Both the position numbers and the translations under genes were made by a program. A DNA stretch of 64,000 nucleotides from Haliclystus octoradiatus. Lineage: Eukaryota; Cnidaria; Staurozoa; Stauromedusae; Haliclystidae. Shown one piece after another: positions 1-44,500 of this stretch; the first letter of the stretch is position 1; every line of letters starts with the position of its first letter. The notes under the pieces are model-generated. The model was given only the letters and a program-made list of their open reading frames with translations. It did not search any database and was not told where the DNA came from. The stretch spans positions 10,606,125-10,670,124 of the forward strand of contig OU744448.1 in the NCBI GenBank assembly GCA_916610825.1. The letters are read 5' to 3'.

Positions 1-1859
1 AGTAACTGAGTACAGGTAGACCGTCTGCATAAAAATCCATATTGGGCATCAGATATCAGATGATTGGAAATAAGATAATCCAGTAATTGTTTAGTAATGA
101 TGGACTCCGTTAGCTTACACGAAATACATGTCAACGAAATGGGTCTATAATTCTTGCACAAGCTAGACTTGCCTTTCTTGTAGATAGGGATAATAATAGC
201 TTTTTTCCAAATATCAGGTAAATTGCCAGAGAGCATAGAGGATTCGAATAACAATGATAGAGGATAAGCAATCTCATTGGCAATTGATTTCATGAAAAAT
301 GCTGGATAACCATCTGGTGTTCTTGACGTTTTATTTGGAAGCTTTTTTAGTGCTTTCAGTACACTTAAAGTAGAAAATGATGCAAAACTAAGACTTGTAT
401 CGCTTGAAACACGTGGCTCAAAAGCAGGGATATTCCCATTGTCAGTAGTAAAAACGGTTGCAAAGTATTTATTTAATAAATTAGATTTGTCAATATCTTC
501 AATGTGCTTGACTCCAGTCTCGTCCATCAACGATAGTATTTGTGGATGTGAATTCATCTTGGAATTAACAAAAGAATAAAAGTTTGATAGTGAACCACTG
601 TTAATTATATTTTCTTCTAATTTGAGTTGATTGTGTTTAACAGCAGAGTCATAATCACGAGAAATCTGTTTGAATATATTATAATGAGCAGGTGAATCAT
701 GTCTTTGTCGATATGCAACTCTCTTCTTTAATGCCAAAGACCGAACTTGTTTTGATCTTTTTGCCTTTCGAGAATTTTTATGGGATTTTGGAACGAAGTT
801 ATCTACGCAAAAGTCTAATTTAGAACATATTTCTTTCCAGAAAAGATCAACATCACCATTGCAATGATTGTACAAAAATTTCCAATCTGTTTTATCGAAC
901 TCAACTGATATTGCATTATAATCTGCTTTCCTATAGTTGTAACGGGTTTGGTGGGTGTTATTAATGTTTTGTGATGTGGGTACATGTATGCTGAAATTAA
1001 TTGCGTTATGATCACAAGTACTTGTGAAAGGCGCAGTAACTTCAATATCAGAAATGCGATCTGGCGAGGATGTAAAAATGAGGTCTAATAAATTGTTCTT
1101 TCTAGTTGGCTCAGGAACAACTTGTTGTAGATTATTACGTAAAATAGAGGATAAAAAAGATTCTGAGATAGTGCCACCAGAGCAATCAGGGATTTTCCAG
1201 TCAATTAAAGGGAAATTGAAATCACCAACAAGGAAAACTGGGAAATCAAAGTCAGTGCAAAAATTTATAAAGTTACAGAGAACGTTTGTGTGTTCTGTTG
1301 AATTTGAAAAAGACGGGGGATGATATGCACATACCATGCGATTTACCAAGTAGGTTGATAAATGAATGTCAATAACAATAGCTTCAATATCCAAGAATGC
1401 TTGAGGTAATTCAATAATGGAAAACTTTAATGTAGATTTTAAAAATATAGCAACACCGCCTCCAATTGTTTCTTTGCGATCCGAACGTATGGTAGCATAA
1501 CCAGTATCATTCACAAGTAGACTATCAGGAATATTTTTATTTAGCCATGTTTCTGTAACAAAAATAATGTCGTATAGCTGTGACTCTAGAGTGTCATACA
1601 AATTATTTAACTTATTCTTCAATGATCTTGAGTTGAAGTAGAGACATTTCAACTGTGAGCTGTCCAATATTGGACAATTTAATAATGTTGATTTTGGGAT
1701 GGTTGTCTGCTTGTTAGAATCATCACCAGATGCTGTATTTAAAAGTATGCTGTTCATCATTTTTGACGTAGAGATGTGGAAATTATTGGCTGTGGCGGAG
1801 TGGCCTGTGCAAATGTGCAGTATCCAGAAGTCGGCCAAACCCAGATCGGCCAAAGCCAT
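1..1859 (-). mobile_element. Non-LTR retrotransposon (LINE) ORF, 5' part, open at window edge
   Basis: A single uninterrupted minus-strand frame runs from a stop at 1923-1925, through a Met at 1859, to base 1, about 620 codons. Early on it has an apurinic-endonuclease-like domain: NSRSLKNKL, then VTETWLN (catalytic Glu, about residue 100), GGGVAIF, VGDFN (about residue 215) and STCDHNAINF (catalytic His, about residue 281). After a basic linker, the reverse transcriptase begins near residue 480, with IIIPIYKKGKS, NYRPISLT and AQYGFLCRRSTCTQL. The YxDD box would lie beyond the window. This order is typical of CR1/jockey-like LINEs, but the clade is inferred. The intact frame suggests recent insertion. 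It lies downstream of the last visible SERGEF exon, on the same strand. Confidence 0.9.
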
Positions 1860-1922
1860 GCTCAGAGTACTCACTTTAACAGCATGTAGATGGCTAAGGC
1901 TAATAGACCGCTGATTAATAGC

Positions 1923-3470
1923 TTATGAAAGGAAGGTTTGAAAACTGACTGAATGGATGTAACTCAGGTAGACTAAAGATCCAACTAGATATGGTTAATT
2001 TTGATTTATAATACTGGGATACGAGAATTGTATTTGCTGTGCGTTTGAACTGGCATAACTGATCGAATTAAGTGTCATTTAATGTTCTTGTGTCACAATA
2101 AACTATTTAGGGTCCATTTAAGTTTGACCAATTAATGTTCCATCGTCAAGATAATAAAATTAAATAATGGTAATGTTCAGACGTTAGGTCAATACAATAT
2201 ATCGAATTACAGTGCATGGAGATACCGGGTGAGAAGATTACCATGCTGTACACCTTTCTAGAGTCTATAGTGCAGATTGAAAGGTAAGGTAGAGAAACAC
2301 CATAACTGCATTGCACATACGTGTAAATATCTGTGAATTTTTGAGCTACAATTTCTAACAGACTATTTCGATGGAGTGGAGCAAATCGTTATAATCCATG
2401 TATAAACATTGGCTATTTCCCCTCTTTGCTTCAATAACTGATGTAGTGGGATCTCTGGAACTGCATTCCTTAATCATGTTGCTGAATGCGGTCGTAAATA
2501 GCCAAATGCCCTTTCAATAACTGACAATGGTGCATGATTTGAGCAGAGACGCGCTCACGTGAATCCCACTGGTGCGCATTCCCGTCATGCTTTGACAATG
2601 CGCACAGGAACGCTCCAAAAAGGCTAGTCACAATTTTCACTTGAGCTCCCTCGTTAATTCAAGAAGATGTTGTAGATGTTGGCCATCTGATCGTGGCGCG
2701 GAATGACTTCATGGCTGCATTCAATCGATCCTCGTATAAAAGCTGTGAACAATAGGGGGAATATGGGGTCCATACGGGGAAGAGCGACATTACGAAGCTT
2801 TCAGTGGGTATTTCTGCTTTATGATTCCCATAGTTCTTCAGTTGGCTGAAAAACCTTAATGTCAGAAGAAGTCAAACGTCCCTTTACTTGATTTCTCATG
2901 TCATATCACCATCCAATAGTTCATTGGTTACTGCTTCACCCATACTATTCAAATCAGTGTTTGATATTTATTTCTGGTCGAAAAAAGATGCATTTTGCAT
3001 TGTGCCATTCGATTACTCTGTTGATGGAATACAATAACTGTGCCGAGTTGACATTTCCAACCAGTGATTATCTGTGCCGACTGAATGTGCTTTATGCTTA
3101 AATGTGACTGTGCGGCAATTTAAGTGCAACTGACTATAAGGCAACACATGAAGTTTTTTCTGTAGTTGTAGTTGTAATGTTTGGTAATTTTGAAAATCTT
3201 AACAAATGGGATTGCTTTGCGATGAATAATATCAACAGATTGCTGATAACAGAAAGAGGAAATTTCAAAATCAAACACTACTCTTACCTAATTCATAATT
3301 GCATGTCTATACCATAGAATAGGGAATTCTGTGAATTATAGGGTTGCAAATTCAGGATTCAAGTAAAATAATGAATTGTTGCAGTAGCTTTAAATAGCAT
3401 CATAGACACCCCATCGATCGTAGTACTACACTTAATAATTCATCAAACATAAATCATAACAAAGACCTAC
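1923..3470. other. Non-coding stretch between LINE and SERGEF exon 9
   Basis: I checked both strands for the expected terminal RCC1 repeat of SERGEF (a W-G-W-N-E-H-G type block) and for other family-like exons and found none. The sequence is AT-rich with no long frame. It is either the start of the next SERGEF intron or sequence beyond a truncated gene. Confidence 0.5.
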
Positions 3471-6400
3471 CAGACAATGCGAGAGAATGCTCAGCTCCAC
3501 AACAGATTTTAGTGATTCGTCTTTCACATAGATCAGATAGAATATCAGGTACGTAGCATTGATTGGTTTCACGTCCAAGTTGACCATAATCACAACGACC
3601 CCAACTCAATATTTTACCATCGTCTATGACAGATACAAGAAGAAGACTGAACATATATAGCTCAGAAAGATTTCTGTTACATATAAATGGAGTATATGGT
3701 AAAAAAAGTCATTTTTGTCAATTTGTCATTGTAAATTAAATAGATACGAATATTTTTCTGGTTTTTAATATATTGTAACGCGCATTTTGAGCAAATTCGG
3801 AAAACTCACTAGAAATAAATATCATTAAAAACTCCCATGCGGGCCACAGTGGGCAATAGGTAGGGTTATGAAGACGAAATTGGCTTAATTCGTATGTAAC
3901 TAATGTTTTTGTTACGTTAGAATGTTGAATTATTTGTTGAATTATTATTAAAAAGTTGAGCTATATGTGCAAAAAATCATAAAACAAGCACCAGTCTGTG
4001 TGCAGACGTACGTTTTTCTTCCTTGTACGCAGAGGGAAGAAACAGTAGGTCTGCCATTGTTTACATTAAATATTCTGTACTATGACACATCTATCAAAGC
4101 CTGATTAGTTTTGACCCTCTAAATGAATCAGTTCAATGGTGCTGCTTAACAATGTAACATGTCTAGCTTATGGCGCTGACACATGGCATGGTCTGTTGGT
4201 AATAGGAATAGTACATGATGATTTAATGTCTAGACTTTATACCTGTTAATGCCAGAGAGTGACTCCATCCACATGCGATATCAACAATACAACATGGTAA
4301 ATCAACTTTATGCGGTAGATACACAAATTCAACAATAGATTGTTTTAATAATACATTGCCATCAACAGATATTGATTTAATTGATGGCAAACCACATTGT
4401 CCATGATTGTTAGCACCCCAGCATAGAACATTACCATTGTCTGAAATAAGGAAAAACTAGTGATTGAGTCAACCTGTGATAGCGACCGCTATTATTGTTG
4501 ACCTTGGTCCCTGAGAAGCTGTATTAATCAAAATAACCAATATTGTTACATGTACTTATATATAGGACGCTCTAGTGTTGAGCAATGAAAACATATCTTT
4601 CTGAAGAAGATAGTTAATTAAACGTTTGAATCTGAATCTATACAGTAAAATCCCATATAATTAGTAAAAATATCTCAAATATACCTAGGTGATTGAGTGC
4701 ACATTCATTTCTTAAAAAATACTCATTAAGTTGAAGGTAAATTTGTAGAAACAAAAAGATTCATGAATAACATAGCATTATGGAAAAACCTCCCTTCTGA
4801 AACGTATGTATACAGTATGTAACCTAACAGCCAGTTATAATGAGATTGACCACTATAACGAAGTGATACCAGTATTTCTATAGAAGGCAAAATCTCAATT
4901 TAATGAAACGTAGAAGTTTGAAACGCTGGGTGAAATGACCATCACAGACATTGTTAATTTACAGTAGGTTAAGGTTATTACAGAGTAATTGGTTGTGCGC
5001 ATAATTGTGATGAATGGGTTTACCTGTCAATGCCATTGAATAATTTCCACCAGCTGCTACTTTTCTAATTTGTTGTTTGGAATTTCCAAAATCAACTGCA
5101 ATTTAAATAATATACTGTTCATAATGTATGTATACATGCTAAAGTTATACAAATACTATATCAATGATTTAATAGGGAATAACCACAACCTATAGACATG
5201 TATTTATACAAATGACATCATGATTTCTATGTTGCCTTTCAGATATTGTTTAGATGATTCATAAATAAGTTGTGTTTAATTCATATGAATAAAATTGAAA
5301 TTTAATTATGTGTAACTTAAAAATGGTTGCATGATGCAACCAAAACGTTGTCAACTCAATTAATTATTTCTAGTAATAAAATAGGATCAAATGTACGTCG
5401 TGTAGAAGATTCTGATAAACACAGAATTATCCTACATCAGAACAATGAAGCTCCCATACTTTTATGGAACCTCTACCATCCCAAGATTCTTTGTGCGACA
5501 GTTCTATCAGAGACAACAGTTCATACATCTGGCTAGGATTCAATAATCTTCAGGGTTTGACAAAATGGGGGGATTCTGGGACTGAGAGTCCCTTAAGGCT
5601 AGCACAAATTCAGAATCAAGGGGAAGAAATACCGGTGGTTGTATTCAAGTTTTTTTAATCAGAGAAAAAATCAGTTTCTTTAACAAAATTTTTCTTCTCA
5701 CCTTGAACAAGAGAATTTTGTAGTTTTTCTGGAGATTTGCTATGTCCAAGTTGACCTTTTCTAGATGCACCACATGCAAACACTTTTCCACTATCTGAAA
5801 GTGAAACATAAACAATTGGCATCTCAATATTATGGCTGCAGTCCTATTTGTTGAAGAGTACTTGCGTAAACAATTCATGAACGTTGGATGGCCAATTTCT
5901 TCATGAACTGTTCATCAGATGTTCATCAATGGAGATTCAGGTAGAAAAGGTCAATTAACGATCCTGAAATTTTTCTGAACTGTTATTGACCTGTTTATCA
6001 TATACCAATTTCATGAACTAATTACGTTTCTAGCAGGAGGAATTCTTGTGAATTTCAAGTTGCCTTGAGGATTACATCATTTCATATCTTCAGAAACCAG
6101 TATAAACTCTCAGCCTGGAAATTGAGTTCGATCGAAGCCTTTCATATTAAAAATATTGGGAAACCCAGCCATTTCAGTTGTCTGGCAAAACCCCTGCTAA
6201 ACATTTCATGAACTTTCACGCAATTTCACATTCAGGAACCAGTTCATGAAGTGTTCATGAAATCTATGTCACTTTTCGGAAAGTGTTCATGAACTTTCAG
6301 GCAATTTCACATTCACGAACACTTTGTGACTGTTCATGAATTGTTCATGAACTCTTTGTGGCTGTTCATGAACTGTTCATGAAGCGTTCATGAACTTTCT

Positions 6401-9400
6401 GAAAATTTCACATCTATGAACTCTTTGTGAATTTCATCAACTCTTTGAGACAGTTCCTGAGGTGTTCGTGAACTTTCAATCAATTTCCCATCCATGAACT
6501 CTTTGTGATTGTTCAGGAACTGTTCATGAACTGTTTATTAACTTTCAGTCAATTTCACATTCATGAACCAGTTCATGAACTGGTTCATGAAATGTTCATA
6601 AACTTTCTTCATGAACGTTCAGGCAATTTCACATTCATGAACCAGTTCATGAACTGGTTTGTGAAGTGTTTATGAACTCATTGTGATTGTTCATTAACTG
6701 TTTATGAAATGTTGATGAACTTTCAGGTAATTTCATTTTCATGAACTAGTTTATGAACTGGTTTAGGAAGTGTAGATGAACTCTTTGTGATTGTTCATGA
6801 ACTTTCAGGCAGTTTCACATTTATGAACCAGTTCATGAACACATGTCTTAGTAGTAGCATAACTATATTTCTTGTGTGTCAATTGTTGAATGTTCAAATA
6901 ATGCCAACATATCTCAAAATACAGTATGCAAGAATTTTGAATAGCAGTGTTTCCTATTTATACTTCATATATATATATACTGTATAATAATAGAATCAAG
7001 AAAGATACACCATTTTTGCTGTTACTTGAAGTTTCATGTTGTTAAACGATCATCAGACAGAATATATATAGAGTCCTGAAAGCCAAAAACAGGCATTTGA
7101 TGCAAAAAGAAATAAATTAAAAAATGAGAAAACAAATTACACACCTGTTAGGATGAGGGAGTGATTCATACCAGCTGCAACCATTTTAACAGTTTCCTTA
7201 ACCTTAAACAATCACAATAAGTTGTGGTTAAGAACACAAAGGTAATTCCAATCCAAAGAAAAGCAATTGCAAAATGTGTTACATGGCCATAGGCGAAACA
7301 AGGTTAAAAACTATAAATATTTGTGAAGCCTCCCAAAAGAGCCTAAAAATATCAAGTACGAAAATATTACACTGCCCATACTTGAAGTTATAATAATTAT
7401 TTACTCTGATCACCACAATTTGCACAGTAGCATTAGTAGTAGTACAGACAGCTGAATTGTAGGAATGTTGATGTAGTTCTTTCGTTCAACATACACAAAG
7501 AACACCACACAGCTGTATGGACGGATCTGCACCAGAGGCTAGTCCACCCAGGCTTACGTTAAAGGGAATGTTACTGGCCGTCTTGTTAAGTAATAAGAAA
7601 AAAGGTTCAATTTCACAAATTCAATGCTGTGTTGATGTTTTTGCTTTCTATAATGATTTTATAGTGCCAATTCATTAGACCTAAAACATGCTAAAGTTTA
7701 GATTGTTTACACTATCATCTATATTCATATATTCATACTATTTTATTAGTAGTAGTTTGTACTTATACTTATACTTATATTTTACAATTATTATTATTAT
7801 AGATTTACAGTATAAGAAAGCTTGCATCAAATAATACTAATTGTTCTTTGAAAAGCGAAAAACTTGTATCTAAAACCCGATTGATCAGAAGACTAAAAGA
7901 AAAACAAACTACTGGTAATAAACTTCCATCAGTGTTCAGCTTAATAATTTGGCAGTCAATCCATAAGTGTGGACAGCATATCAAGGCATGATCAAAGGTG
8001 AATTTGGAATATCCAAAGTTTGGAGAAACCTGCATATAAAAGCCATCCGCTGGATCTAGAGAAATTGACTGTGATTTACTGGTAGATCATGATTATAGGA
8101 TTGGACAAATACAGGATTGATTAATAGAACATTTACATGTCTATATAAAATGACAATACACACAGTAGGCCTCAATGTATAGAGATGAGTATTAGAGCCA
8201 GGGTCCGACAAAAGTGGGGATCCTGGGATCCTAGATCCCGAAAGGCTAGACAAAATTCAGAAGAAAATTGATGTTTTTAATGATTTTCTGGTCAAATCTC
8301 AACAAGAAAATTCAGAAGAAAATGTTGAAATGCCTTTAGGATTCCAGAAGGCTGAACCTTTTGTCGGAGAGCATTAGAGAACATTTGACTATAGAGCATT
8401 TGCATTAAACAAATATAAACTACCTGTACATGATTGAACTCAAATGAAGAACCAGATGTTGGGACACCAAGTTGACCGAATGAATTAGAACCAGCAGCAT
8501 AGAAAAACGAATCCATTCCTTACAAGAAAATTAATGTAAAAATAGATTGATCAACATCAAGTAATCATCACATTCTAAATAATTCATAATCTAAAATATA
8601 ATCCTAGATATTTATAAGACTTCAAACGATGTTTAAAAGAACAAAAAAAATACTAAGGGTAAATACAAGATGTCAAGTTCAATTCGGAATCAACTTGCAT
8701 TGAATTGTTTTTAAATATATTCCAGTCCTGAGGAGCCCGTAGAAGAGTAGAAAACCCAATGATTCGTAATGAACTATTCATTCACAGTTCATTAATGTCT
8801 AATGACTAGCTTTCCTAGGACCATGACATGTTCATAAGGGATATTTCCATGTAGCCTATATGAAAATAAACAAATGATATTATGTTTATTTCGCAACTGT
8901 GTTAGACATAAGCTAAAAATATGTCATGAAGTTCATGATTTGTGCATGAACCTATGGATGTTTTCACAGTAGAGGCCCAAGAAACAGTTCATAATTTTAA
9001 TAACCTACCTGTACAAATAAGTGTATGATTCCAACCGCAGGTAATGCTTGATACGATTGACATTTCTTCATTGTACGTTGGTAATGTAACATTTAAATTT
9101 GTTTTGTTCATACCAAGCTCACCCTTTTGATTAGAGCCAGCAAGTAACAACCGCCCCTTCTCTATTGAAATAATCAAGAGCAGAAAAAGCTATTACGATT
9201 TGACCCAAACTCGTTTACAGGAAAGCAGAATACAATAGACCTTGTTTTAAATTTTTCCGTAAATTTCTTTTCGTTTTCCATAAATCAGAGGTGCCAGCGT
9301 CATGTGCATCATTTATATTATCACAATGAAAAGCAGTAGGCCTAATTGAAGAAAAAAATTTGATCAACTGTGATTTCCATATTCCTTATGATATAACACA

Positions 9401-17800: not shown

Positions 17801-17882
17801 GGCAGGATGGCCGAGCGGTCTAAGGCGCTGGTTTAAGGCACCAGTCACTTCGGTGGCGCGGGTTCGAATCCCGCTTCTGTCA
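17801..17882 (+). tRNA. tRNA-Leu (anticodon AAG)
   Basis: A complete type II tRNA cloverleaf: acceptor GGCAGGA pairs with TTCTGTC, then discriminator A. The box A region is TGGCCGAGCGG, and the anticodon stem CTGGT/ACCAG encloses loop TTAAGGC with anticodon AAG. There is a long variable arm with a CACTTCGGTG hairpin, and T-arm box B GGTTCGAATCC. A TTTT pol III terminator follows at 17884. The CCA is not encoded, as in eukaryotes. It is very close to animal tRNA-Leu(AAG), has no intron and appears functional. Confidence 0.97.
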
Positions 17883-18081
17883 ATTTTATATTTTCAAGAA
17901 CTTTATAGCATACTGAGACGAGACAAGCAATTTGACCAGATTTCAGATGCCAAGCAAGATATTACAATAGAACCACATTTGATAAATAAATAATACACAT
18001 TTGGAGATTCTATCTGCAAATCAATCATATTCTATATTGAATATATCCTTCTTTTTCAGTTTCATTCAAATATATCTCAAA

Positions 18082-18450
18082 ATGATGACAGGAAAATTAA
18101 TTACTATCTCAATTGTAGCAGTTGCCATGTTACAATTTAGTAACATGTGCTATGCACGAGCAGTGATAGATACAAAATCTAATGTTAATGATGAAGTTAC
18201 CCACCGCTTATTTCATTTATTGAATAACCAATTGAAAAATGAAGATTTAACAACATTTGATGACGAAAAAGAAACAGAAAGAATGGGACAAGCATTACTA
18301 GATTTTATCTTAAAAGAGGCTAATTCAAAACGAGACATCACTATGGATGATTATTTTCAAAGGAGGTTTGGACGAAAACGAGAAAATGAAATTGAAGAAC
18401 CGAAAGTTAATTTCGAGGCTGACGAAATGAGACGAGAATTTAGAAATTGA
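18082..18450 (+). CDS. Amidated RF-type neuropeptide precursor (122 aa)
   Basis: One coding exon preceded by an acceptor (ttctttttcag, 18060). The first of two adjacent Met codons is taken as the start. Residues 1-25 are a signal peptide (hydrophobic core LITISIVAVAMLQF, likely cut after CYA). A helical spacer at 38-82 leads to Lys83-Arg84, then the peptide at 85-96 (DITMDDYFQRRF), Gly97 as amide donor and Arg-Lys-Arg 98-100, followed by an acidic C-terminal piece (101-122). This predicts one amidated 12-mer secreted from neuroendocrine cells. Tyr91 after Asp-Asp is a good sulfation context, and DDYxxxRF-amide aligns without gaps to insect sulfakinin DDYGHMRF-amide. RF-amide identity is visible; the CCK/sulfakinin link is inference. 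An internal Arg-Arg at 94-95 could also be cut. No second peptide copy is seen. Confidence 0.82.
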   Translation: MMTGKLITISIVAVAMLQFSNMCYARAVIDTKSNVNDEVTHRLFHLLNNQLKNEDLTTFDDEKETERMGQALLDFILKEANSKRDITMDDYFQRRFGRKRENEIEEPKVNFEADEMRREFRN

Positions 18451-18610: not shown

Positions 18611-18616
18611 AATAAA
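18611..18616 (+). terminator. AATAAA polyadenylation signal of the neuropeptide gene
   Basis: The first AATAAA after the stop codon, 160 bp downstream, and before the convergent AASDHPPT stop at 18715. Confidence 0.5.
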
Positions 18617-21700: not shown

Positions 21701-24700
21701 ATAGAAATTCAAACCTTGGATGAGAGACTTCTAGTTATTGGAGTGAAATTAGCATAATTGGACATGTTTAAATCTAGTCCAATTCCCAATGCCTTTATGT
21801 AGCTTTCTTTCAAGCACTAAACAAAAAAAAATCATCAATAAAATTATAGGAAAGGACATAGTAACGGTAGCCAGGTCTTGTGCGCAGTCAAATGCGCAGT
21901 CAAATGCGCAGTCAAATGCGCATGCAAAATTGAAAGTTTTATTTACACATTTCGAAGACAGAAATGCGTTCTTCGCATGCGTATTTGACTACTGGGACTC
22001 TATCCACGTCCTAAAATTATACATTTCTTATAGTAATCACAATAAAGAGTGTTATGTAAAGCAATCTCAATATTTATTACACTTGGGTATAAAGAGATAC
22101 GAAGGTTGTACCGACATTATATGCGAAAAAATTATATTCATTTCCGTAAAACATATCTGTCGATCTTGAGTAAATTGGTGGCAAACTTTAATACTTTATA
22201 CAGCACAAATTTCATTGATTTCATAAATTTTGTCCATTTTTAATGGATTTTCATGAAGTTAATGAACTGTTTATCGATATTTATAAAGTTCATGAACTGC
22301 TATTAATGGATTTTCATGAAGTTTACGAACTGCTCATAGATGTTTATGAAGTTCATGAACTGTTCATGGATATTTATAAACTTCGTGAGCTGTTCATGGA
22401 CTTTCATCAAGTTCACAAGCTGTTCAGAGATTTGTTCATATATGTTCGTAACGTTCATGAGATAGATTTGAGATGAAGTTCATGAATTGCTTATAGATTT
22501 TCATAAGGTTCATAACTGTTAATGAATTTTTATAATAATGTTCATGAACTTTTAACGGATTTCCATGAAGTTTATAAACTGCTCATAGATGTTCATAAAG
22601 TTCACGAGATATTAATGGATTTTCATAAAGTTTATGAAATGCTCATGGATTTTCATAAAGCTTGTCAACTTAAAATGGATTTTCCAAAAAGGTCATGAAC
22701 TGTGAATGAACTTTCATAAAGGTCACAACCTGATAATGGATTTTTATAAAGTTCATGAACTGTTAATGGATTTCCATTAAGTTTATGAACTGTTAATAGA
22801 TGTTCATGAAGTTCATATACTGTTCATGGATATTTATAAACTTCATGTTCATGGACTTTCATCAAGTTCACGAGCTGTTCAGAGATTTGTTCATATATGT
22901 TCGTAACGTTCATGAACTGCTAAAGCCTATGACAGAAATAGATTTGAGATGAAGTTCATGAATTGCTTATAGATTTTCATAAGGTTCATAACTGTTAATA
23001 AATTTTTATAATAATGTTCATGAACTTTTAACGGATTTTCATGAAGTTTGTAAACTGCTCATAGATGCCATAAAGTTCATGAGATTTTAATGGATTTTCA
23101 TAAAGTTCATGAACTGTTTATTGGTATTTATAAATTTTGATAGATTTGAACTGAACATAGATTTTCATCAAGTTCATAAACTGTTCATGGATTTTTATCA
23201 AGCTCATGAACTGTGGATGGATTTTGATAAAGTTTATAAAGTTAATGAACTGCTGATGGATTTTCAAGAAGTTTATGAAATGCTCATGGATTTTGATAAA
23301 GCTTGTCAACTTAAAATGGATTTTCCAAAAAGGTCATGAACTGTGAATGAATTTTCATAAAGGTCACAACCTGATAATGGATTTTTATAAAGTTCATGAA
23401 CTGTTAATGGATTTCCATTAAGTTCATGAACTGTTAATGGATTTTCATAAAGTTTATGAACTCCTCATAGATGTTCATAAAGTTCATGAACTTTTAATGG
23501 ATTTTCATAAAGCTTGTCAACTTAAAAATGGATTTTCCAAAAAGGTCATGAACTGTGAATGAATTTTCATATAGGTCAAAACCTGATGATGGATGTTTAT
23601 AAAGTTCATGAACTGTTAATGGATTTCCATCAAGTTCATGAACTGTTAATGGATTTTCATAAATTTATGAACTCCTCATAGATGTTCATAAAGTTCATGA
23701 ACTTTTAATGGATTTTCATAAAGTTCATGAAATGCTCATAGATGTTCATAAAGTTCATGAACTGTTTATGAATCGTTTATGAACCATTCATGAGGTTGAT
23801 ACTGGTCACACTTTACACCACTTATAAGAATTAAACAATAATCAGGCATCATTCCTTATTAACTTCAAAACGCCACTCCTTTGAGAGTGATAAAAGCACA
23901 TTTTATAGGGTGGTATTGTTTGACTTAATTTATACGTATTTGTACAGGAACATTGGAAAACTCACCCAAAGTCTATAAAACGCCTTCAGCCTCTTATTAT
24001 CTTCTTGAAATGAATGTATATAGTACCATTCATCGTTACAAAACTGCCTCCTCATCAAATTAAAGTATTCTGGTAATGATGTATTTACTAGAATCACAAA
24101 ATCATAATGATAAGATTGTAACTCAAGTGTGAAAGTTGTGATCAAAAGGATTGGAGGATATAATATTAAAATAAAGAACTTTATCACTGTAGTGCTACCA
24201 AAATAACCTCTTGTGGAAAATGCAGAACATTTTAATTTCTAGTCATAACTGACAAATTCACTGGCTAGTCAATTGTGGTAATTTGCGGCAATTGTGTTGA
24301 CAATGATGCTTTTCTCAATGTGTTTCTGGGTTAGATATCAACAAGGGGAGGTTCCTGTCCGCCTTACAACCGGTGCACCTAGATTCAGTAGCCTCAAGTT
24401 TTCAACATTCTGTACTGAATGGGCTATCCACCATGATCTATAATCTCCATACCATCATGTTGAAATGGATATGCCGAGGCAGCTATCAAGACCATGAAAA
24501 GAATTGCTGACTAAGTCACCTCAAATGAAAATACCCACAATTCATATTTCCACAAAGCAATCATTGAGTATCGAAACACTGCAAGAAATAATGGACTAAG
24601 CCATGCACAAAGACTGTTTCGAAAACCGGTCAAGAGCTCCAATAAAACTGACAAAAATGGGACAGAGTTGCTGATATCATGTCTCAAGATCCCACAGAAA

Positions 24701-27700
24701 GAAGCTATGAGGTAAAGTCAGAGACATGAAAGCTATATTGGCGCAGCCTTCAATATATTCACCATTACTATGGTCCACAGCATTGTTACACTCAAGATCC
24801 AACTGTTCCAGATGTCAATCCTGCTGCTCCGAACCTATGTCGCAGTGCTCGTATATCTAAACCTTCAACTAGATTAATTAATCTACTAGTACACAAGCTG
24901 TTGACTGAGAAATGCTTATATCTTCCTCTGACCTGTGCAGGTTTTTGACCAGCATAATATTGCACCATTCAAAGCGAACTATAACACTATAGTAAAGATA
25001 GCAACGTCACAACACATGGGATGCTTAAACCATGATTTTACCACAGCATCCCAAACAATGTAACCGACCAATCCACTGGCAGGATTATGTTTGACTATGA
25101 AGTGATATTTTGGAAAAATAATTACGGATAGGATATAATTTTTTATTATTGTTTTTACAGTCAAACCATTAAATAATAATCAATATGATCATTAGATATC
25201 ATATCTAATCCTTCTTAATATTATAACTTTTTGTATTTTCAAAACCATTTTTATAATATTGTACGCTTGCAAAGCACTGAAAGTTATAACTGAGCATGAT
25301 CAATGAAAGGAGTGATCACTGATCATAATAGCTTGCGAGCACAAGCATTTTGAAATTAGTGGCAATGGTTTGACCTGATGTAAATACCATTGTGGTAATG
25401 GGATCTTGCTCTGGTGGTATGTGGCTGTTAAAATAAAATGGAAGGCAAAGGAGTCTCCAATTTCTAATCTGATACACCTATCTGTGTGAAATACAGTCGG
25501 TAATCAATAGCCCAATGTTAATTGGCTGTCCAGGAAGATGGGCAAACAGTCCAACAATAAAATAACAGCTCAATTGAGCAGTTTATCAAGAGTAAATGAA
25601 TTTCAAAAGACATCTTATTCATGGGGTTTTTCATGCACATTTTATGATCTACTCATGAAAATGAAGTCCTTTAACACCAATGAACTGCATTTTAAAGGCC
25701 TATGATTTTGTTTGTTGCTTAAAAGGGTCCATTAACTACTGACAATAAATTTACATATAATACTTTACCTGGTCGTTTTAGATCCATCACGTCAATACCA
25801 ACTAAAAGAAATATCAAATATTTACAGGGGATAGATCACCATCATTGTGCTATAGCAATAATAATAATAAAACCCATAATAATACAAATGTGGGAGGAAT
25901 GAGCCTCAGCCAGTAAGCCAATAGTTAACAACAAATGTAGTTTTTTACGTGGCTCTGAAATGTCTGTTAGAAAATGATACATTGGTAAATATTTGTATTG
26001 ACATGCAGCAAATTCGTAACAGTCCTGTCCAGGCAATCCTTGGCCCCGCTCAAGATTCAAAGTAAAGAAATTAAGTGTGCTATAGAATTAAAATAAAATT
26101 TTGCAGTAGCATTCTTCTAACCTTTATTATTATTGCTTGTTGCCAAAGCTACAACATCACCCTGGTGAGATATAACAAATTATAATGAAAAGATTATAAT
26201 AAAGAAAATGCACTTTACCAAAGAACCTTAGGTATACAATACTGCAATGCAATGAAACCTTGCTATGGTAACGACTCCATCATGATGCAGGTACGATTCC
26301 TGCTAATAAGCAGAGGGATAAATCATTGAGATTGACAGTAATTCTGATGTTGTGTTATACTTACACTATGAGTGATCAGTATTATGTCAGTACATTTTCA
26401 GTTGTCTTGTCTATTTCAGTACTTTTTCAGTATATTTTCAGTACCTTAAAATCTCAGAGTGTTAGTGATATTAAGATGATTGCAATACAAACAGGTTTAT
26501 ACAGCAACTACTGTGGGCCTACATGAAGTTGAAATGAAAATAATAACAATGACTAATACTGTAGGAATTAGTAAAAAAGGAATAAATTCACAATGAATAA
26601 TCTAATCCTCCCTTAGCAGATAGCAGATTTTGGAACAAAATCTACATCATAAGATATTGCTTACAATAGTGAAGCTGTACACCCCGTAATTACATGTCAA
26701 TAGAAAAGATTTTTGAGGACAGGATTGAAGCTATCCCTTTTGAAAACAGTTCATGGATGTTAAATCGTCTAATTTACATAAAGTTTTCATATCATGATAG
26801 GTTCATGAAAAGGATCATGAAGAAAAGGCATATATAACTCCCATGAACTTTGATGAACAGATTTTAATTGTTCATAAGTTTAATGTATATGGGCAGTTCA
26901 TGAACTCAGAAGGTGTCCTATCTGAAAACGCAAATTCAATATTGCATGTCTTGTCTATCTACTCTCATGAAGAAAGATTTAGGACAGCTGTTGATTTGTA
27001 AAATCCATGCAAAAAAGTTCATGAGCTCATAAACGTGAAATTGCTCAAAAGTTAATAAACTGTAAATGAAGTTTCATGTAATTTCACATTCATGAACCAG
27101 TTCATGAACCGGTTCATGAAGTGCTAATTAACTCTTTGTGACTGTTCATGAATTGTTCATGAACCCGCAAAAAAATGTTTGTGAACTGTTCATGAAATCA
27201 TGTAATTTTTCACATTATCATCATTTTCATGAACATATTAAGTCAATGCTGGTATTGAAATATAAATTAATCTGTATCTAAAAGGGGAAATCCATGCATT
27301 AGAAGAACAGTAAGCAGCAAGGCTGCTTAGTTTAAATTCATTGTCAAATTCAATAGTTACCCATACAATTGTCAATCTAAACTAATTGACAGTTTTACTT
27401 CAAAATTTAGTTACGTTAACAGAACTTTTGAAAGAAACTTTTAAAACTTTCGAACTTTGAAGAGAAACTTTCTAGAAGGGTTTCAAATGAGTAGCCTGCT
27501 TCCCCTAAAGCAAACACCTTTGGGACAGCCTGCTAATAGAACTATTACTTGAATTGTTTTTACAAAATGTAAGCGGTACTTTGCAAAACTGCTTACCTGG
27601 TGTGATATATTGAAGCTAAATTTTTCATGTTCTTTATTTGATGAGATCTAGAAATTAAAAAGAAAAATAATGGCAGATAAGTATTTTTCTAAGAAGGAAT

Positions 27701-30700: not shown

Positions 30701-32297
30701 TGCCAAAGTTTTAGACAATTTCAACACGTAATAAAAAAGTTATAATCGTTTGAACTTTGTCCTGCTTTTGTGTATGATTTGTTCTCGAAGAAAAAGTTTG
30801 AAGAAGAACATCCAAGCGACCAACATGTCGATATTTGGTACCATTTTGAAGCCAATGGCGTTGTGTGCCTCATCCTGAAGTTTCATCCATGTGTGCTTTC
30901 AAAATTCAACTGCAGAAATGATTTCCTTCAATGTTTATAGACGGGGTGACTACGCCCCTGCAAAAAACAGTTCAGGAGTGCATGAACAGTTAATGAATGT
31001 TAAATGGCCTCAATTTCCATGAACTGTTCATGAACACTTGTGGAAAGTTCATGAACAGTTCATGAAATGTGGGGCCATTTAACGTTCATGAACTGTTCAT
31101 GAACTGTTTATGAACTATTCATGAACCCCTGAACCTTTTTTCACAAGGCGGTCAGAGCGTCAAAACATAGCAAAGCGAGGAAGAAGTAAAATATCAAGCT
31201 GTTAAAAAATGGTAAATCCGAAATTAAGTGGGTGTCACTTTTCTCATTCCATTCAAGTTTGACATGCTCCAGCTGTGACGTTGTGTAAACATCTCAGAGC
31301 ATGCATAATCCTTCCGCTCAAAATTATGGAAATAATGTAGTCTAATTTAACTAGAATATAAAATTGTAGATGAAAAATCAAATTCGAAGTGCATTTAATT
31401 ACAGATGGGCAATTCCAATGTGACTGACCTACGCAACAGAGCATGTTTTGGACAAGGGCATTGACTTAAAAGCAAACTTTAATATTTTTTTGTTTCCTAG
31501 AGACTAAAAACATCGAAAGGACTCTGTTTGACTAAACAAATGAAATTTTTCTGTAAAATCATATAAATTAAAAGAAGATTTAGGACTGTGACTGACCTAC
31601 ACAGAAGCTCGCCATTTTCTCAATCAGACACAAACATTTGCAAAATTCTGTGTCAGTCGTATAACAAATTAAGACAAAATAATTGCTTTCCAATTCTTTA
31701 AAGATGTAAATGTAAGCATATAATCAAGTTGACTTAAAATTCTCAAATAATTCACGGCAATAAACCAATATGTTTTGTGACTGACCCTTCAACGGTTTGT
31801 GATTCTCCCACGAGTCCCGAAAGCAATCGTGACTGACCCATACGTTTTCTTGAAAAACACAAATAATACGCTGTTATGAAAATTTTTATCAACGCAGTTG
31901 TAATAAATAGCCTATAGCCATATAGTAATGTAAAATGGTTGTAGTATTTAATCAAGCTGTAGCACGAAATCAGCATTTAATCTAAACAACGAGGATAATT
32001 GAAAAATCTTTTCTCCTTTGAAGCGACAAAATCGAAAACACGCCTGCTAATCTCAACAACAGCGACAACAGAATTAGCACGTGGTGTGAAGTGTCTATAA
32101 TGAGATGTTTCAAGTTTACAGAAAATTATAGATACACTGAATGCTACAAGTAGAAGTGGAGTAGGCCTACAAAGTAGAGTTGAAAGTACAAATTAACTCA
32201 AGAGCTTTACCTCTCGCGATGGGATCCATTCTGTGACATTGAAGAACCACCTAAGCTCAAATGCATTTAACGCAGCCTTTCGTGTGGATGATATCAT
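18715..32297 (-). CDS. AASDHPPT: L-aminoadipate-semialdehyde dehydrogenase-phosphopantetheinyl transferase
   Basis: Transfers 4'-phosphopantetheine from CoA to a carrier-protein serine (fatty acid synthase, mitochondrial ACP and others). Eleven exons join in phase: 32297-32211, 28436-28347, 28231-28133, 27647-27597, 26161-26122, 25801-25769, 24087-23966, 21816-21715, 20952-20869, 20272-20217 and 18862-18715. They total 912 bp or 303 residues, against 309 in human. Recognisable blocks in order are LRWFFNVTEWIPSRE (about 15-29), LIGRLLIR, LQRTEKGKPIL, FSFNISHQ (about 102-109), VGIDVMD with Asp126, EYFNLMRRQF, FYRLWCLKESYIKALGIGL with Glu178 and Lys182, WKFEES, and a C-terminal FKDLMKHSV block. 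The Sfp-type Mg2+/CoA motifs (GID, W-x-x-KES) are intact, so it should be active. The start is divergent from VPS36 by 297 bp. Confidence 0.96.
21105..21250. repeat. Dispersed repeat copy (AAAATGGAGGATGACG... AGAAGGCTAGCAC)
   Basis: A diverged member of the family seen at 5555 and 8199. It lies in an AASDHPPT intron. Confidence 0.4.
21331..21378. repeat. Two tandem copies of a 24-bp unit
   Basis: The unit TAATGATCGTAAATTCCCTC plus ACTG is repeated exactly twice. Confidence 0.85.
21885..21925. repeat. Three tandem copies of 12-bp TGCGCAGTCAAA
   Basis: A perfect short array. A reverse-oriented GCATGCGTATTTGAC about 60 bp downstream makes the locus a potential hairpin. It lies just upstream of AASDHPPT exon 8 in that gene's direction. 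Confidence 0.8.
22205..23790. repeat. TTCATGAA-rich satellite with higher-order structure (AASDHPPT intron)
   Basis: About 1.6 kb of units near 30 bp, built on AAGTTCATGAACTGTTAATG and GGATTTTCATAAAGTTCATG. Longer blocks recur: GCTTGTCAACTTAAAATGG followed by GATTTTCCAAAAAGGTCATG occurs near 22658, 23303 and 23513, and GATAGATTTGAGATGAAG occurs near 22461 and 22938. This is higher-order duplication. Open frames here merely read the repeat (MDF-HEV-NEL pattern) and are not genes. Confidence 0.9.
24365..24885 (+). pseudogene. Decayed LTR-retrotransposon integrase fragment
   Basis: In shifting plus-strand frames this reads FSSLKFSTFCTEW, then an in-frame stop before SPYHH, then after a frameshift NGYAEAAIKTMKRIAD (the integrase core Glu motif), IIEYRNTARNNGLSHAQRL and, at the end, RSARISKPSTRL. 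The order matches the C-terminal half of a Ty3/gypsy-type integrase and its basic tail. Stops and frameshifts mean it is dead. It lies in an AASDHPPT intron on the opposite strand. Confidence 0.75.
26740..27240. repeat. TTCATGAA-rich repeat
   Basis: Shorter and more diverged array with TTCATGAACCAGTTCATGAA and CTCTTTGTGACTGTTCATGA blocks identical to those at 5880-6850. It lies in an AASDHPPT intron. Confidence 0.8.
28487..29378. mobile_element. 892-bp non-autonomous DNA transposon with ~25-bp TIRs and TA flanks
   Basis: The left end AGGGAGACCGGGGAGACTTG plus GACC matches the right end in reverse complement (GGGGAGACCGGGGAGACTTG plus GACC) apart from the first bases. TA dinucleotides flank at 28485-28486 and 29379-29380. 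Related words (GGGGAGACTTGGGACACGG) occur inside. It has no transposase frame. TA duplication suggests a Tc1/mariner or pogo-type mover. It is inserted in AASDHPPT intron 1, 51 bp from exon 2. Confidence 0.85.
30960..31140. repeat. TTCATGAA-rich short repeat block
   Basis: Contains GAACTGTTCATGAACTGTTT and AGTTCATGAACAGTTCATGA. It is a small member of the same family, in AASDHPPT intron 1. Confidence 0.75.
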
Positions 32298-41500: not shown

Positions 41501-44500
41501 ACAAATTACTCTCTATTTATACTATATTCTATTTACGTCAATGCTAAAGTCCAAATAATAAAAATACAAAACAAAGCCATTAAGACAGGAACAATTTTAC
41601 ATGATACGGAATAAACACATTCAAGCTAAACTATTATTAAACATTAAACTATTAACACGGGAACAATTTCAATCTATCGTCATTTATGTTCCGCATTTTA
41701 TTATCATGCAAGCTACGTATACACCCGCGTTAACATGTATGACGTCAACCTGCCTATTCCCATTAACAATGTATTAACTAATATCACAAACGAGGCAAAT
41801 CAAACATAACGGCCCTCAACTAAAATTATAATAACAGATAAAGGCACAGTTCTCTTCACTCATTCATTGTTAGCATTATTTTATGTGTATTTAGTAATAA
41901 TTTGCAGTTATCTAAAGTCGTAAAGTGTTAACTTAGGCCTAATAAATGAGTTTACAGATCAATAGGAAAATGTCCACTGCCAACACGGTTTCTATTAGAG
42001 GTAATCATTTTGACTCTGTTCCCCTGAAATTCACTTGGACATTTCCTAAATTAACTTGGCTGTACAGCAACAATACAGTGCTAATGGTACTGTTGTTAAA
42101 TGTTTAAATGAGTACAATCAAACATTTTACAGTTGTCATATCGACCACCTGTCTATAGTGGTCACTGCAGTAATATCTGAAAATAAGTATTCTATCAAAA
42201 TCAACCCTGATTATAGAGCCCACCTAGTATATAGAATGGTTAATTTATTTAGATATTAGAGGTAGTTTTTCTATACATGTTTTGCTGTAGTGTAGTAGCA
42301 GACATAATATCAGAATAGTCTGCCAGGCCTTTGTTTGTGGACTTTATTGACAAATGAAGTGGATATACTGTAATAACAGTTCCAACTTTAACGGTATTCT
42401 GTCAATAAGAGTAAGCTATGAAGAATCCAATACCGAGTAATCGCCGGTCATACGTTGCTAAATATTTACCGCTAGCAACGGATTCTGTCAAAACCGGTAA
42501 AATAGTTTGTCTCCCGAGCATACCGTTATTGCCGGATTCAACTGTATAAATCAGTAGGAAATATTGATTGATCATGATTCATGAATATACCTCTGAGATT
42601 CCCAAACGATCAAGATTAGAAATGTCGAATGTACCACCAACAGCAGCAGTGTCAACACCACCTATAACCAATAAATAAACAATAATTAAATCATTATTCT
42701 ACCTGTACGTGCGTGTTGTGTTATAATTATCACTTTCCAACGTAATTGAGACTGACCTGTTCCTCTCTTTTGGAGTCGTAGGCTTTTCAAGATGGAATCA
42801 AAGCGTTGATCCTACAAATAGCATATTACATAACTTTATAATTTATGTTTTGCATCCATCTATTCATTTTTAAAATCTATTTTTATAAATTTTAAATTTT
42901 AAAAATTCATAAATGTTTATGCAATTTATAATATTCTTTAGAGAAGCTTTTGATTAACTTTCTGTGAAATGAAAATAATTTATTTTATTTTAGCAATCTG
43001 CAGTAATTAAGTTTATACCTTTGAGAGATGTGGAAGTTTAACATGCACTCCTGCTCTGAGACCAGTACCAAGATTTGAAGGGCAAGTTAAAATGTAGCCA
43101 AGATGTTTATTCCACATGAACTCGGCTCCTTTGCCTTTGATGTGAGTCTCAACCTGTTTGAGCCCATGGCAGAAGCGTTCAAAAACAGCCTTCATGTTAC
43201 CCCCCTTCTCCATTGAGATGACACGGGTGTGGTCCTCTTCGTTGAGCCAAACAAGGAAATTCTTCTTGTCATTGTGCCAGATACCACGACCATCAGGCCA
43301 ATCGCGTGCCATTCCAGCGCATGTTAACAATGTCGAGACAGGTTTATCAAATAAGAAATGATCGTTGATAAGTTGTTCTTGTTCTTCATCTGTCATGTCG
43401 GCAAGAGGGTAATACTTTCCCTTGAGATCACCTACAATTATTTTCAAACAAGAAGTCCAGACTGTTCAAATATACACAAGGTAATTAGAATGTATGAATA
43501 TATATTATTGCTGTATTCATTACCTTTAAGAGAGATGAGAGCATCTGAGACAAGATGTTCAACAGCTCTGCGCTCAGCTCTTGTGCAATGTGGTGGCAAT
43601 GCATAGCCACGGATGCTGCGGCCAGTGCGGCATCGGGATGACAAAACATAATTCTCATCGAGATGACCTCCTCTGATTTTGGATGCATCTATATCTGTTT
43701 TGTGGATTGCATCCTTTTTGTAGCCATTGTGACGATCTTCAATGACAGGATCAAATAGGTCGGCAAACACACTGTAGGATTCTTCATCACCGGCAACTAA
43801 GCCAACGGTTGAGATGAATGGATGGCCAGGATTGTCAACGCCGGTTTGGATTGCTTGATCAAGCGTGAAACCACTGGGAGTTACCTAGAAAATACAAACA
43901 AACTGTCGTTTAACCAGACAGTTTGAGCTATATAGAAACGGATCATTAGAGTCTGCTAGCACGATTGTACTATACCTTATCTCTGAGTTTGGCATAGAGG
44001 GAAGGGCTCAAGAACTTTGCCATGGTGTTGTTATGAAGGCGTAGATCTGGATAATCGCCCATTGGCGAGAAGAGACTGTAAGCGCGACGCATACTTTCGC
44101 ATCCACCGTCAACTTGAGTGGATGAGTATGCCATTCCAGCAGCAGCGGATGCCATAGCACCTATGCCTACGGCAGCCTTTGATGCCAAACGACCAAGTAA
44201 TGCAGCCATGTCAATTTAATTTACTTGAGATGATTCTTTGAGTGTTTCCTGAGTTTTTGTTGAAGTGCGATCGAGTGAGTGATTTCGGTAATCGATTTGA
44301 CGTCATAATTGATAACTTCAGAATGAAAGCTCAACCGGCGTAGTATATTTGATGTCATGATTATAATAATAATAAATAATAATAATGTCATGATTATGTT
44401 TCTTGTTCATCTATCGGCCATTTTAAAGTTCATGGTAAATCTTGCATATAGCCGAAACTTGGGTCTCGCTGCAATTTGTCTCGCTGCAATTTTCTGAGAA

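What the first reader, a model, noticed from the sequence alone, without database searches (positions are those of the whole stretch)
18082..18450. Single-peptide RF-amide precursor with a sulfakinin/CCK-like layout
The precursor has a signal peptide, KR before DITMDDYFQRRF, then G-RKR and an acidic tail. The 12-mer ends RF-amide and has DDY exactly five residues before its C-terminus, as in sulfakinin DDYGHMRF-amide. The acidic tail also resembles CCK precursors. The core F-Q-R-R-F is not one I recognise from a described peptide family, so it may be a divergent CCK/sulfakinin or a new RF-amide.
Basis: partly seen in the sequence, partly recalled or inferred. Interest (0 to 1): 0.78.

Follow-up and report, generated by a model that had tools for sequence, protein, structure and literature searches.

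The report
Single-peptide RFamide precursor, stalked jellyfish
A stalked jellyfish genome holds a small gene that looks as if it makes one short nerve-signal peptide ending in RF-amide; its likeness to the gut hormone family of CCK and sulfakinin is probably coincidence.

Summary
No second copy was found. In 0 of 960 simulated windows did a signal-like ORF carry an RF-amide cassette. A splice acceptor precedes the ATG and AATAAA follows the stop.

By assembly metrics the window is chromosome 3 of Haliclystus octoradiatus (Cnidaria, Staurozoa), which changes the interpretation. [quoted passage not shown] The YGxMxF core is missing, and the Sulfakinin model finds nothing in the genome (a weak nine-position test). 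Against my reading, DDYGHMRF is the best match of nine peptides compared (P 0.009, uncorrected). Cnidarians already have an RRFamide, VVPRRFamide, and single-copy RFamide genes; acidic residues before the peptide are regarded as processing sites there.

Best reading: a new single-copy cnidarian RFamide-type precursor, of a kind that the published staurozoan survey, which asked for three or more similar peptides, would miss. Expression, amidation, sulfation, receptor and conservation in other species are untested.

The parts
18049..18059 (+). probable 3' splice acceptor (TTCTTTTTCAG) of an intron in the 5' UTR
   Evidence: sequence; the GRFamide precursor of the same genome has CTCTTTCAG 7 bases before its ATG. 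By eye, no transcript.
18082..18450 (+). coding sequence of the 122-aa precursor, stop included
   Evidence: translation; no second copy found; codon score positive only in this frame
18082..18156 (+). signal peptide, residues 1-25, predicted cut after CYA
   Evidence: by eye; no predictor available
18328..18333 (+). KR cleavage site before the peptide (residues 83-84)
18334..18369 (+). predicted peptide DITMDDYFQRRF (amidated), residues 85-96; if acidic residues are trimmed as proposed for other cnidarian precursors, YFQRRFamide or DYFQRRFamide
   Evidence: acidic processing described in PMC6402141 (passages)
18370..18381 (+). G (amide donor) followed by RKR cleavage site
   Evidence: RRFGRKR codons occur at one other place in the genome, which is not a precursor
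18382..18447 (+). acidic C-terminal tail, 22 aa, computed pI 4.4
18611..18616 (+). AATAAA, possible polyadenylation signal, 161 bases after the stop

Best explanation
A single-copy, lineage-restricted cnidarian neuropeptide gene of the amidated RFamide kind in the stalked jellyfish Haliclystus octoradiatus. Inferred mechanism: the precursor enters the secretory pathway; prohormone convertase cuts after KR (residue 84) and RKR (residue 100); carboxypeptidase removes RKR; the Gly becomes the amide. This releases one DITMDDYFQRRFamide per precursor, possibly shortened at the acidic residues to DYFQRRFamide or YFQRRFamide. The peptide then acts on a cnidarian RFamide-type GPCR or on a peptide-gated DEG/ENaC channel, most likely to modulate muscle or nerve net. 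The Tyr may be sulfated, but this is not needed for the explanation. Shown: the frame, its layout, no second copy found, the organism (by assembly metrics). Inferred: signal cleavage, processing, amidation, expression, receptor, effect, and restriction to the lineage.
For: Complete precursor layout that chance rarely gives. In-frame codon signal. Splice acceptor just before the ATG and the whole CDS in one exon, as in this genome's own GRFamide precursor with ten QFLRGRFG copies. Precedents in cnidarians: RRFamide ending in Nematostella VVPRRFamide, single-copy GRFamide genes in Hydra, single-copy LRWamide precursors in Nematostella with sensitive receptors. The published staurozoan survey asked for at least three similar peptides, so its script would pass over a one-peptide gene. 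RFamide-gated channels exist in Hydra, and a GRFamide receptor group is ancestral to cnidarians.
Against: No transcript, peptide or relative in a second species could be examined. The codon score is modest, and the segment with its upstream extension ranks 20th of 168. Of nine peptides compared, the best match is sulfakinin DDYGHMRF (5/8, P 0.009), not a cnidarian one (best P 0.053, VVPRRF). The internal RR (residues 94-95) could itself be cut, which would leave no RFamide. The peptide lacks the N-terminal pQ or XP protection common in cnidarian peptides. No paralogue with which to measure selection (the other hit has E 1.48). Searches for the amidating enzyme and DEG/ENaC families in this genome did not complete.
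Confidence: 0.66

Rival explanations
1. A divergent single-copy offshoot of the cnidarian GRFamide gene family: the repeats were lost and QFLRGRF drifted to (D)YFQRRF, with acidic residues before it as the family's processing signal.
For: GRFamide precursor on the same chromosome, C4:34.9 Mb; the C-terminal template aromatic-hydrophobic-polar-x-R-F-G-R fits both; acidic residues precede GRFamides; single-copy GRFamide genes exist in Hydra.
Against: BLASTP of the two precursors gives only E 0.60 at best; identity of the 7-mers is 2/7, permutation P 0.06-0.13 for the three GRFamide references; R instead of G at -3.
Confidence: 0.15
2. A non-bilaterian member of the CCK/sulfakinin family: a sulfated DDY(SO3)FQRRFamide acting on a CCK-type receptor.
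For: DDY-xxxx-RF, 5 of 8 identical to DDYGHMRF, permutation P 0.009 (lowest of nine comparisons, uncorrected); Tyr five residues from the end, within the five to seven of the family; a tyrosylprotein-sulfotransferase-like gene is present.
Against: No CCK-type peptide has been found in Cnidaria according to a review; the G and M of the core are absent; most known neuropeptide GPCRs fall in separate bilaterian and cnidarian clusters; no Gastrin or Sulfakinin match of the protein; no Sulfakinin-model match in the genome. YGHMRF alone gives P 0.08, gastrin/CCK YGWMDF 0.10, cionin 0.24, starfish SK/CCK2 0.64.
Confidence: 0.04
3. A secreted propeptide whose product is not an RFamide: cutting at the internal RR gives DITMDDYFQ, or the protein serves another secreted role.
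For: RR at residues 94-95 is a possible convertase site; a non-amidated peptide regulator is reported in Hydra (PMC12440616, title, section 2.1).
Against: FG-RKR directly follows, a standard amidation cassette; bulky F after RR is a poor site (recalled). No cysteine after the signal peptide, so not a typical cysteine-rich secreted peptide.
Confidence: 0.1
4. A chance open frame or dead gene that is not expressed.
For: Length alone is within chance; modest codon score; no relative seen.
Against: The combined layout did not occur in 960 simulated windows; acceptor, A at -3 of the ATG and AATAAA in order.
Confidence: 0.05

Closest known systems
Cnidarian GRFamide precursors (staurozoan pQFLRGRFamide, cubozoan pQWLRGRFamide)
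   Same: RF-amide end, G plus basic site, acidic residues before the peptide; in this genome's copy also an acidic tail and an acceptor just upstream of the ATG
   Different: one peptide instead of the ten in this genome's GRFamide precursor, RRF instead of GRF, no pQ, no significant precursor similarity
Nematostella VVPRRFamide (Nv-RFamide II)
   Same: cnidarian peptide ending RRFamide; 3 of 6 identical from the C-terminus
   Different: different N-terminus; an anthozoan; that it shares a precursor with pQITRFamide is recalled, not checked
Sulfakinin / CCK
   Same: acidic-acidic-Tyr five residues from an RF-amide
   Different: no YGxMxF core, non-bilaterian host, sulfation and receptor unknown
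Single-copy cnidarian peptides (Hydra pQLMRGRFamide genes; Nematostella LRWamides)
   Same: one amidated peptide per precursor
   Different: other sequences; short peptides with pQ or GPPQ at the N-terminus

Membership tests
Amidated neuropeptide precursor (general kind) | signal peptide, basic-site-bounded peptide with C-terminal Gly, no other domain | tested here: met
   signal peptide by eye only
Amidated neuropeptide precursor (general kind) | expressed in neurons and processed to the amidated peptide | not testable with these tools
   no RNA or peptidomic data
CCK/sulfakinin | Tyr with five to seven residues between it and the amide | tested here: met
   FQRRF, five residues (criterion from PMC8428848, passages)
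CCK/sulfakinin | core YGxMxF of insect sulfakinins and chordate gastrin/CCK (the starfish members depart from it) | tested here: not met
   Y-F-Q-R-R-F has neither G nor M; 3/6 against YGHMRF, 2/6 against YGWMDF
CCK/sulfakinin | match to family profile | tested here: not met
   no Gastrin or Sulfakinin match for the protein (where HMMER's filters drop most matches above E 0.1); no Sulfakinin match in the genome. Low power: the GRFamide precursor of this genome also matches no Pfam family at E 0.001. The genome search with PF00918 did not complete.
CCK/sulfakinin | sulfated tyrosine | not testable with these tools
   only that a TPST-like gene exists
CCK/sulfakinin | acts on a CCK-type receptor | not tested
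   no receptor search made; literature places most cnidarian receptors in separate clusters
Cnidarian GRFamide | C-terminal GRFamide | tested here: not met
   RRF
Cnidarian GRFamide | several peptide copies per precursor (usual, not universal) | tested here: not met
   one copy; Hydra exceptions
Cnidarian GRFamide | precursor sequence similarity | tested here: not met
   BLASTP E 0.60 against this genome's GRFamide precursor

The most novel reading that the evidence does not exclude
A cnidarian sulfated DDY-RFamide that shares ancestry with bilaterian CCK/sulfakinin, which would place that family before the cnidarian-bilaterian split.
Probability: 0.04. Interest if true: 0.9.

Novelty: new member of a known kind. 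Interest (0 to 1): 0.4.

Why it matters
Three neuropeptide families were reported for Staurozoa in the survey seen here, with a script that asks for at least three similar peptides. If expressed, this would be a further one, and a reminder that repeat-based surveys undercount cnidarian peptides. It also gives a clear, testable example of a CCK-like motif that probably arose by convergence.

Tried and rejected
Paralogues: P0001 against its own genome at E 10 gave one other hit (C11, E 1.48), read as chance after viewing the locus. A second RRFGRKR site (C1:24478908) lies in a 31-codon stretch between stops with no signal peptide; the pattern's count, 2, is no higher than the 6 of the backward-pattern control. 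The pattern [DE]Y-x4-F-G-x-R gave 48 places against 52 in the control, 25 of the 48 being one repeated element and its variants; it would not have caught this gene itself, because it wants R two places after the G and the gene has G-R-K-R, so it is no test of uniqueness. IMG/VR scan: 7 pattern matches, none a relative. PDB and NCBIfam: weak hits only, E 0.095 to 1.3. Pfam: only DUF7266 at E 0.18, rejected. Literature: 'FQRRF' occurs in two papers, in one inside a phospholipase, the other not opened; RRFamide variants in 11 papers, of which I opened PMC13137736, PMC7266959, PMC4346854 and PMC3743763 for passages. 'Tyrosine sulfation' with 'cnidaria' and 'neuropeptide' gave one barnacle paper. 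'Staurozoa' with 'neuropeptide' from 2019 gave 48 papers, 30 listed, a few opened. The cubozoan gene named RRFamide in PMC13137736 may be the doubtful Tcy-RFamide-II of PMC6402141, a repeat precursor; that equation is my inference.

Full report
Observation. The translation of 18082-18450 (+) is a complete 122-aa protein with a hydrophobic N-terminus ending CYA, a 57-aa pro-segment, KR, DITMDDYFQRRF, G, RKR and a 22-aa acidic tail (pI 4.4). Its length is not unusual for AT-rich sequence, but the layout is: none of 200 first-order Markov windows gave an ORF of 60 aa or more with a hydrophobic N-terminus and an F-amide cassette, and in 960 third-order windows there were 12,280 signal-like ORFs, 34 with any amidation cassette, 1 with F-amide and 0 with RF-amide. 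Codon usage trained on 971 codons of this genome is positive only in the proposed frame (+0.104 bits per codon; the other five -0.107 to -0.215), though the stop-to-stop segment with its upstream extension ranks 20th of 168. A splice acceptor ends at 18059, 22 bases before the ATG; the ATG has A at -3; AATAAA is at 18611.

Organism. The window is G000:C4:10606125-10670124 in a 261.9 Mb genome of 33 contigs. Contig C33 is 18,316 bp and carries mitochondrial genes, with COX1 on the opposite strand to its neighbours and a DNA-polymerase-like frame (genes named by eye). Haliclystus octoradiatus jrHalOcto1.1 has 33 scaffolds, nine chromosomes, a longest one of 39,977,743 bp and an 18.3 kb mitochondrion (abstract and genome report section of PMC9975415). 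C1 is 39,977,743 bp and C4 is 35.87 Mb, the size of chromosome 3. The paper's total (261,898,343) differs from the tool's by 36.5 kb, unexplained. The genome also encodes ten copies of QFLRGRFG in one precursor, the peptide reported for Staurozoa (passages of PMC6909153). I take the organism to be this stalked jellyfish.

Relatives. No second copy was found: the only other hit at E 10 is 1.48. RRFGRKR is encoded at one further place, not in a precursor. No convincing Pfam, NCBIfam, PDB or IMG/VR relative was found. That silence means little: the same genome's GRFamide precursor has no Pfam match either. No animal sequence collection was available, so conservation in other staurozoans is untested.

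CCK or not. The Tyr lies five residues from the amide, within the five to seven of the family (PMC8428848, passages), and DDYFQRRF matches DDYGHMRF at 5 of 8. With RF held fixed the permutation P is 0.009, the lowest of nine comparisons and lower than for any cnidarian peptide tried (VVPRRF 0.053, three GRFamides 0.06-0.13). Without the DD it fades: YGHMRF 0.08, YGWMDF 0.10, cionin 0.24, starfish SK/CCK2 0.64. Further against: the G and M of the core are missing; [quoted passage not shown] receptor phylogeny puts most known neuropeptide GPCRs in separate bilaterian and cnidarian clusters (PMC11087051, section 8); and the Sulfakinin model finds nothing in the genome (nine positions, weak). A TPST-like gene is present: one 267-aa frame on C6, best PDB match protein-tyrosine sulfotransferase 1, E 6.6e-47. 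Sulfation is thus possible but not indicated.

Cnidarian context. RRFamide endings are known in Nematostella (VVPRRFamide; passages). Single-copy RFamide and LRWamide precursors exist (passages). Acidic residues before RFamides are regarded as processing sites (passages of PMC6402141), so DD before Y may be a trimming signal and not a sulfation motif. The survey of Staurozoa reported three families with a script that asked for at least three similar peptides (passages), so it would pass over this gene. The GRFamide precursor and this one show no significant similarity (E 0.60).

Mechanism. Signal removal, cutting at KR and RKR, amidation at Gly and release of one peptide are inferred from standard precursor biology. 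Target: a cnidarian RFamide-type GPCR or a DEG/ENaC channel. RFamide-gated channels are shown in Hydra (PMC4212090, passages), and a synthetic FRRFamide modulates ASIC1a (PMC3743763, passages). Which one applies here is open. Searches of this genome for the amidating enzyme and for DEG/ENaC channels did not complete.

Verdict. A probable new single-peptide RFamide-type precursor of a stalked jellyfish: new member of a known kind, moderate interest. CCK kinship is not excluded but unlikely.

Noticed in passing
window 43016-44215 (-): Exons of a creatine-kinase-like gene, mitochondrial type by its N-terminus (by eye). ATP:guanido phosphotransferase domains; the top PDB rows for one exon are two-domain arginine and taurocyamine kinases (two stretches each), then creatine kinases.
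   Followed up: partly
window 3457-4456 (-): Two exons with RCC1 repeats, a separate gene.
   Followed up: partly
window 3-1922 (-): Fragment of a non-LTR-type retrotransposon: endonuclease and the start of a reverse transcriptase, the latter below Pfam's cut-off.
   Followed up: partly
window 22240-23770, also 6312-6840, 27089-27120, 31018-31126: Arrays built of TTCATGAAC-like units, partly palindromic (GTTCATGAAC), at several places in the window.
   Followed up: no
window 17801-17882 (+): tRNA-Leu (AAG) 200 bases upstream of the peptide gene.
   Followed up: no
L055:3966-4655 (+): GRFamide precursor with ten QFLRGRFG copies on the same chromosome, coding part in one exon with an acceptor just before the ATG.
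   Followed up: yes
L056:1453-2253 (-): Tyrosylprotein-sulfotransferase-like gene; a search with it found no second copy.
   Followed up: partly
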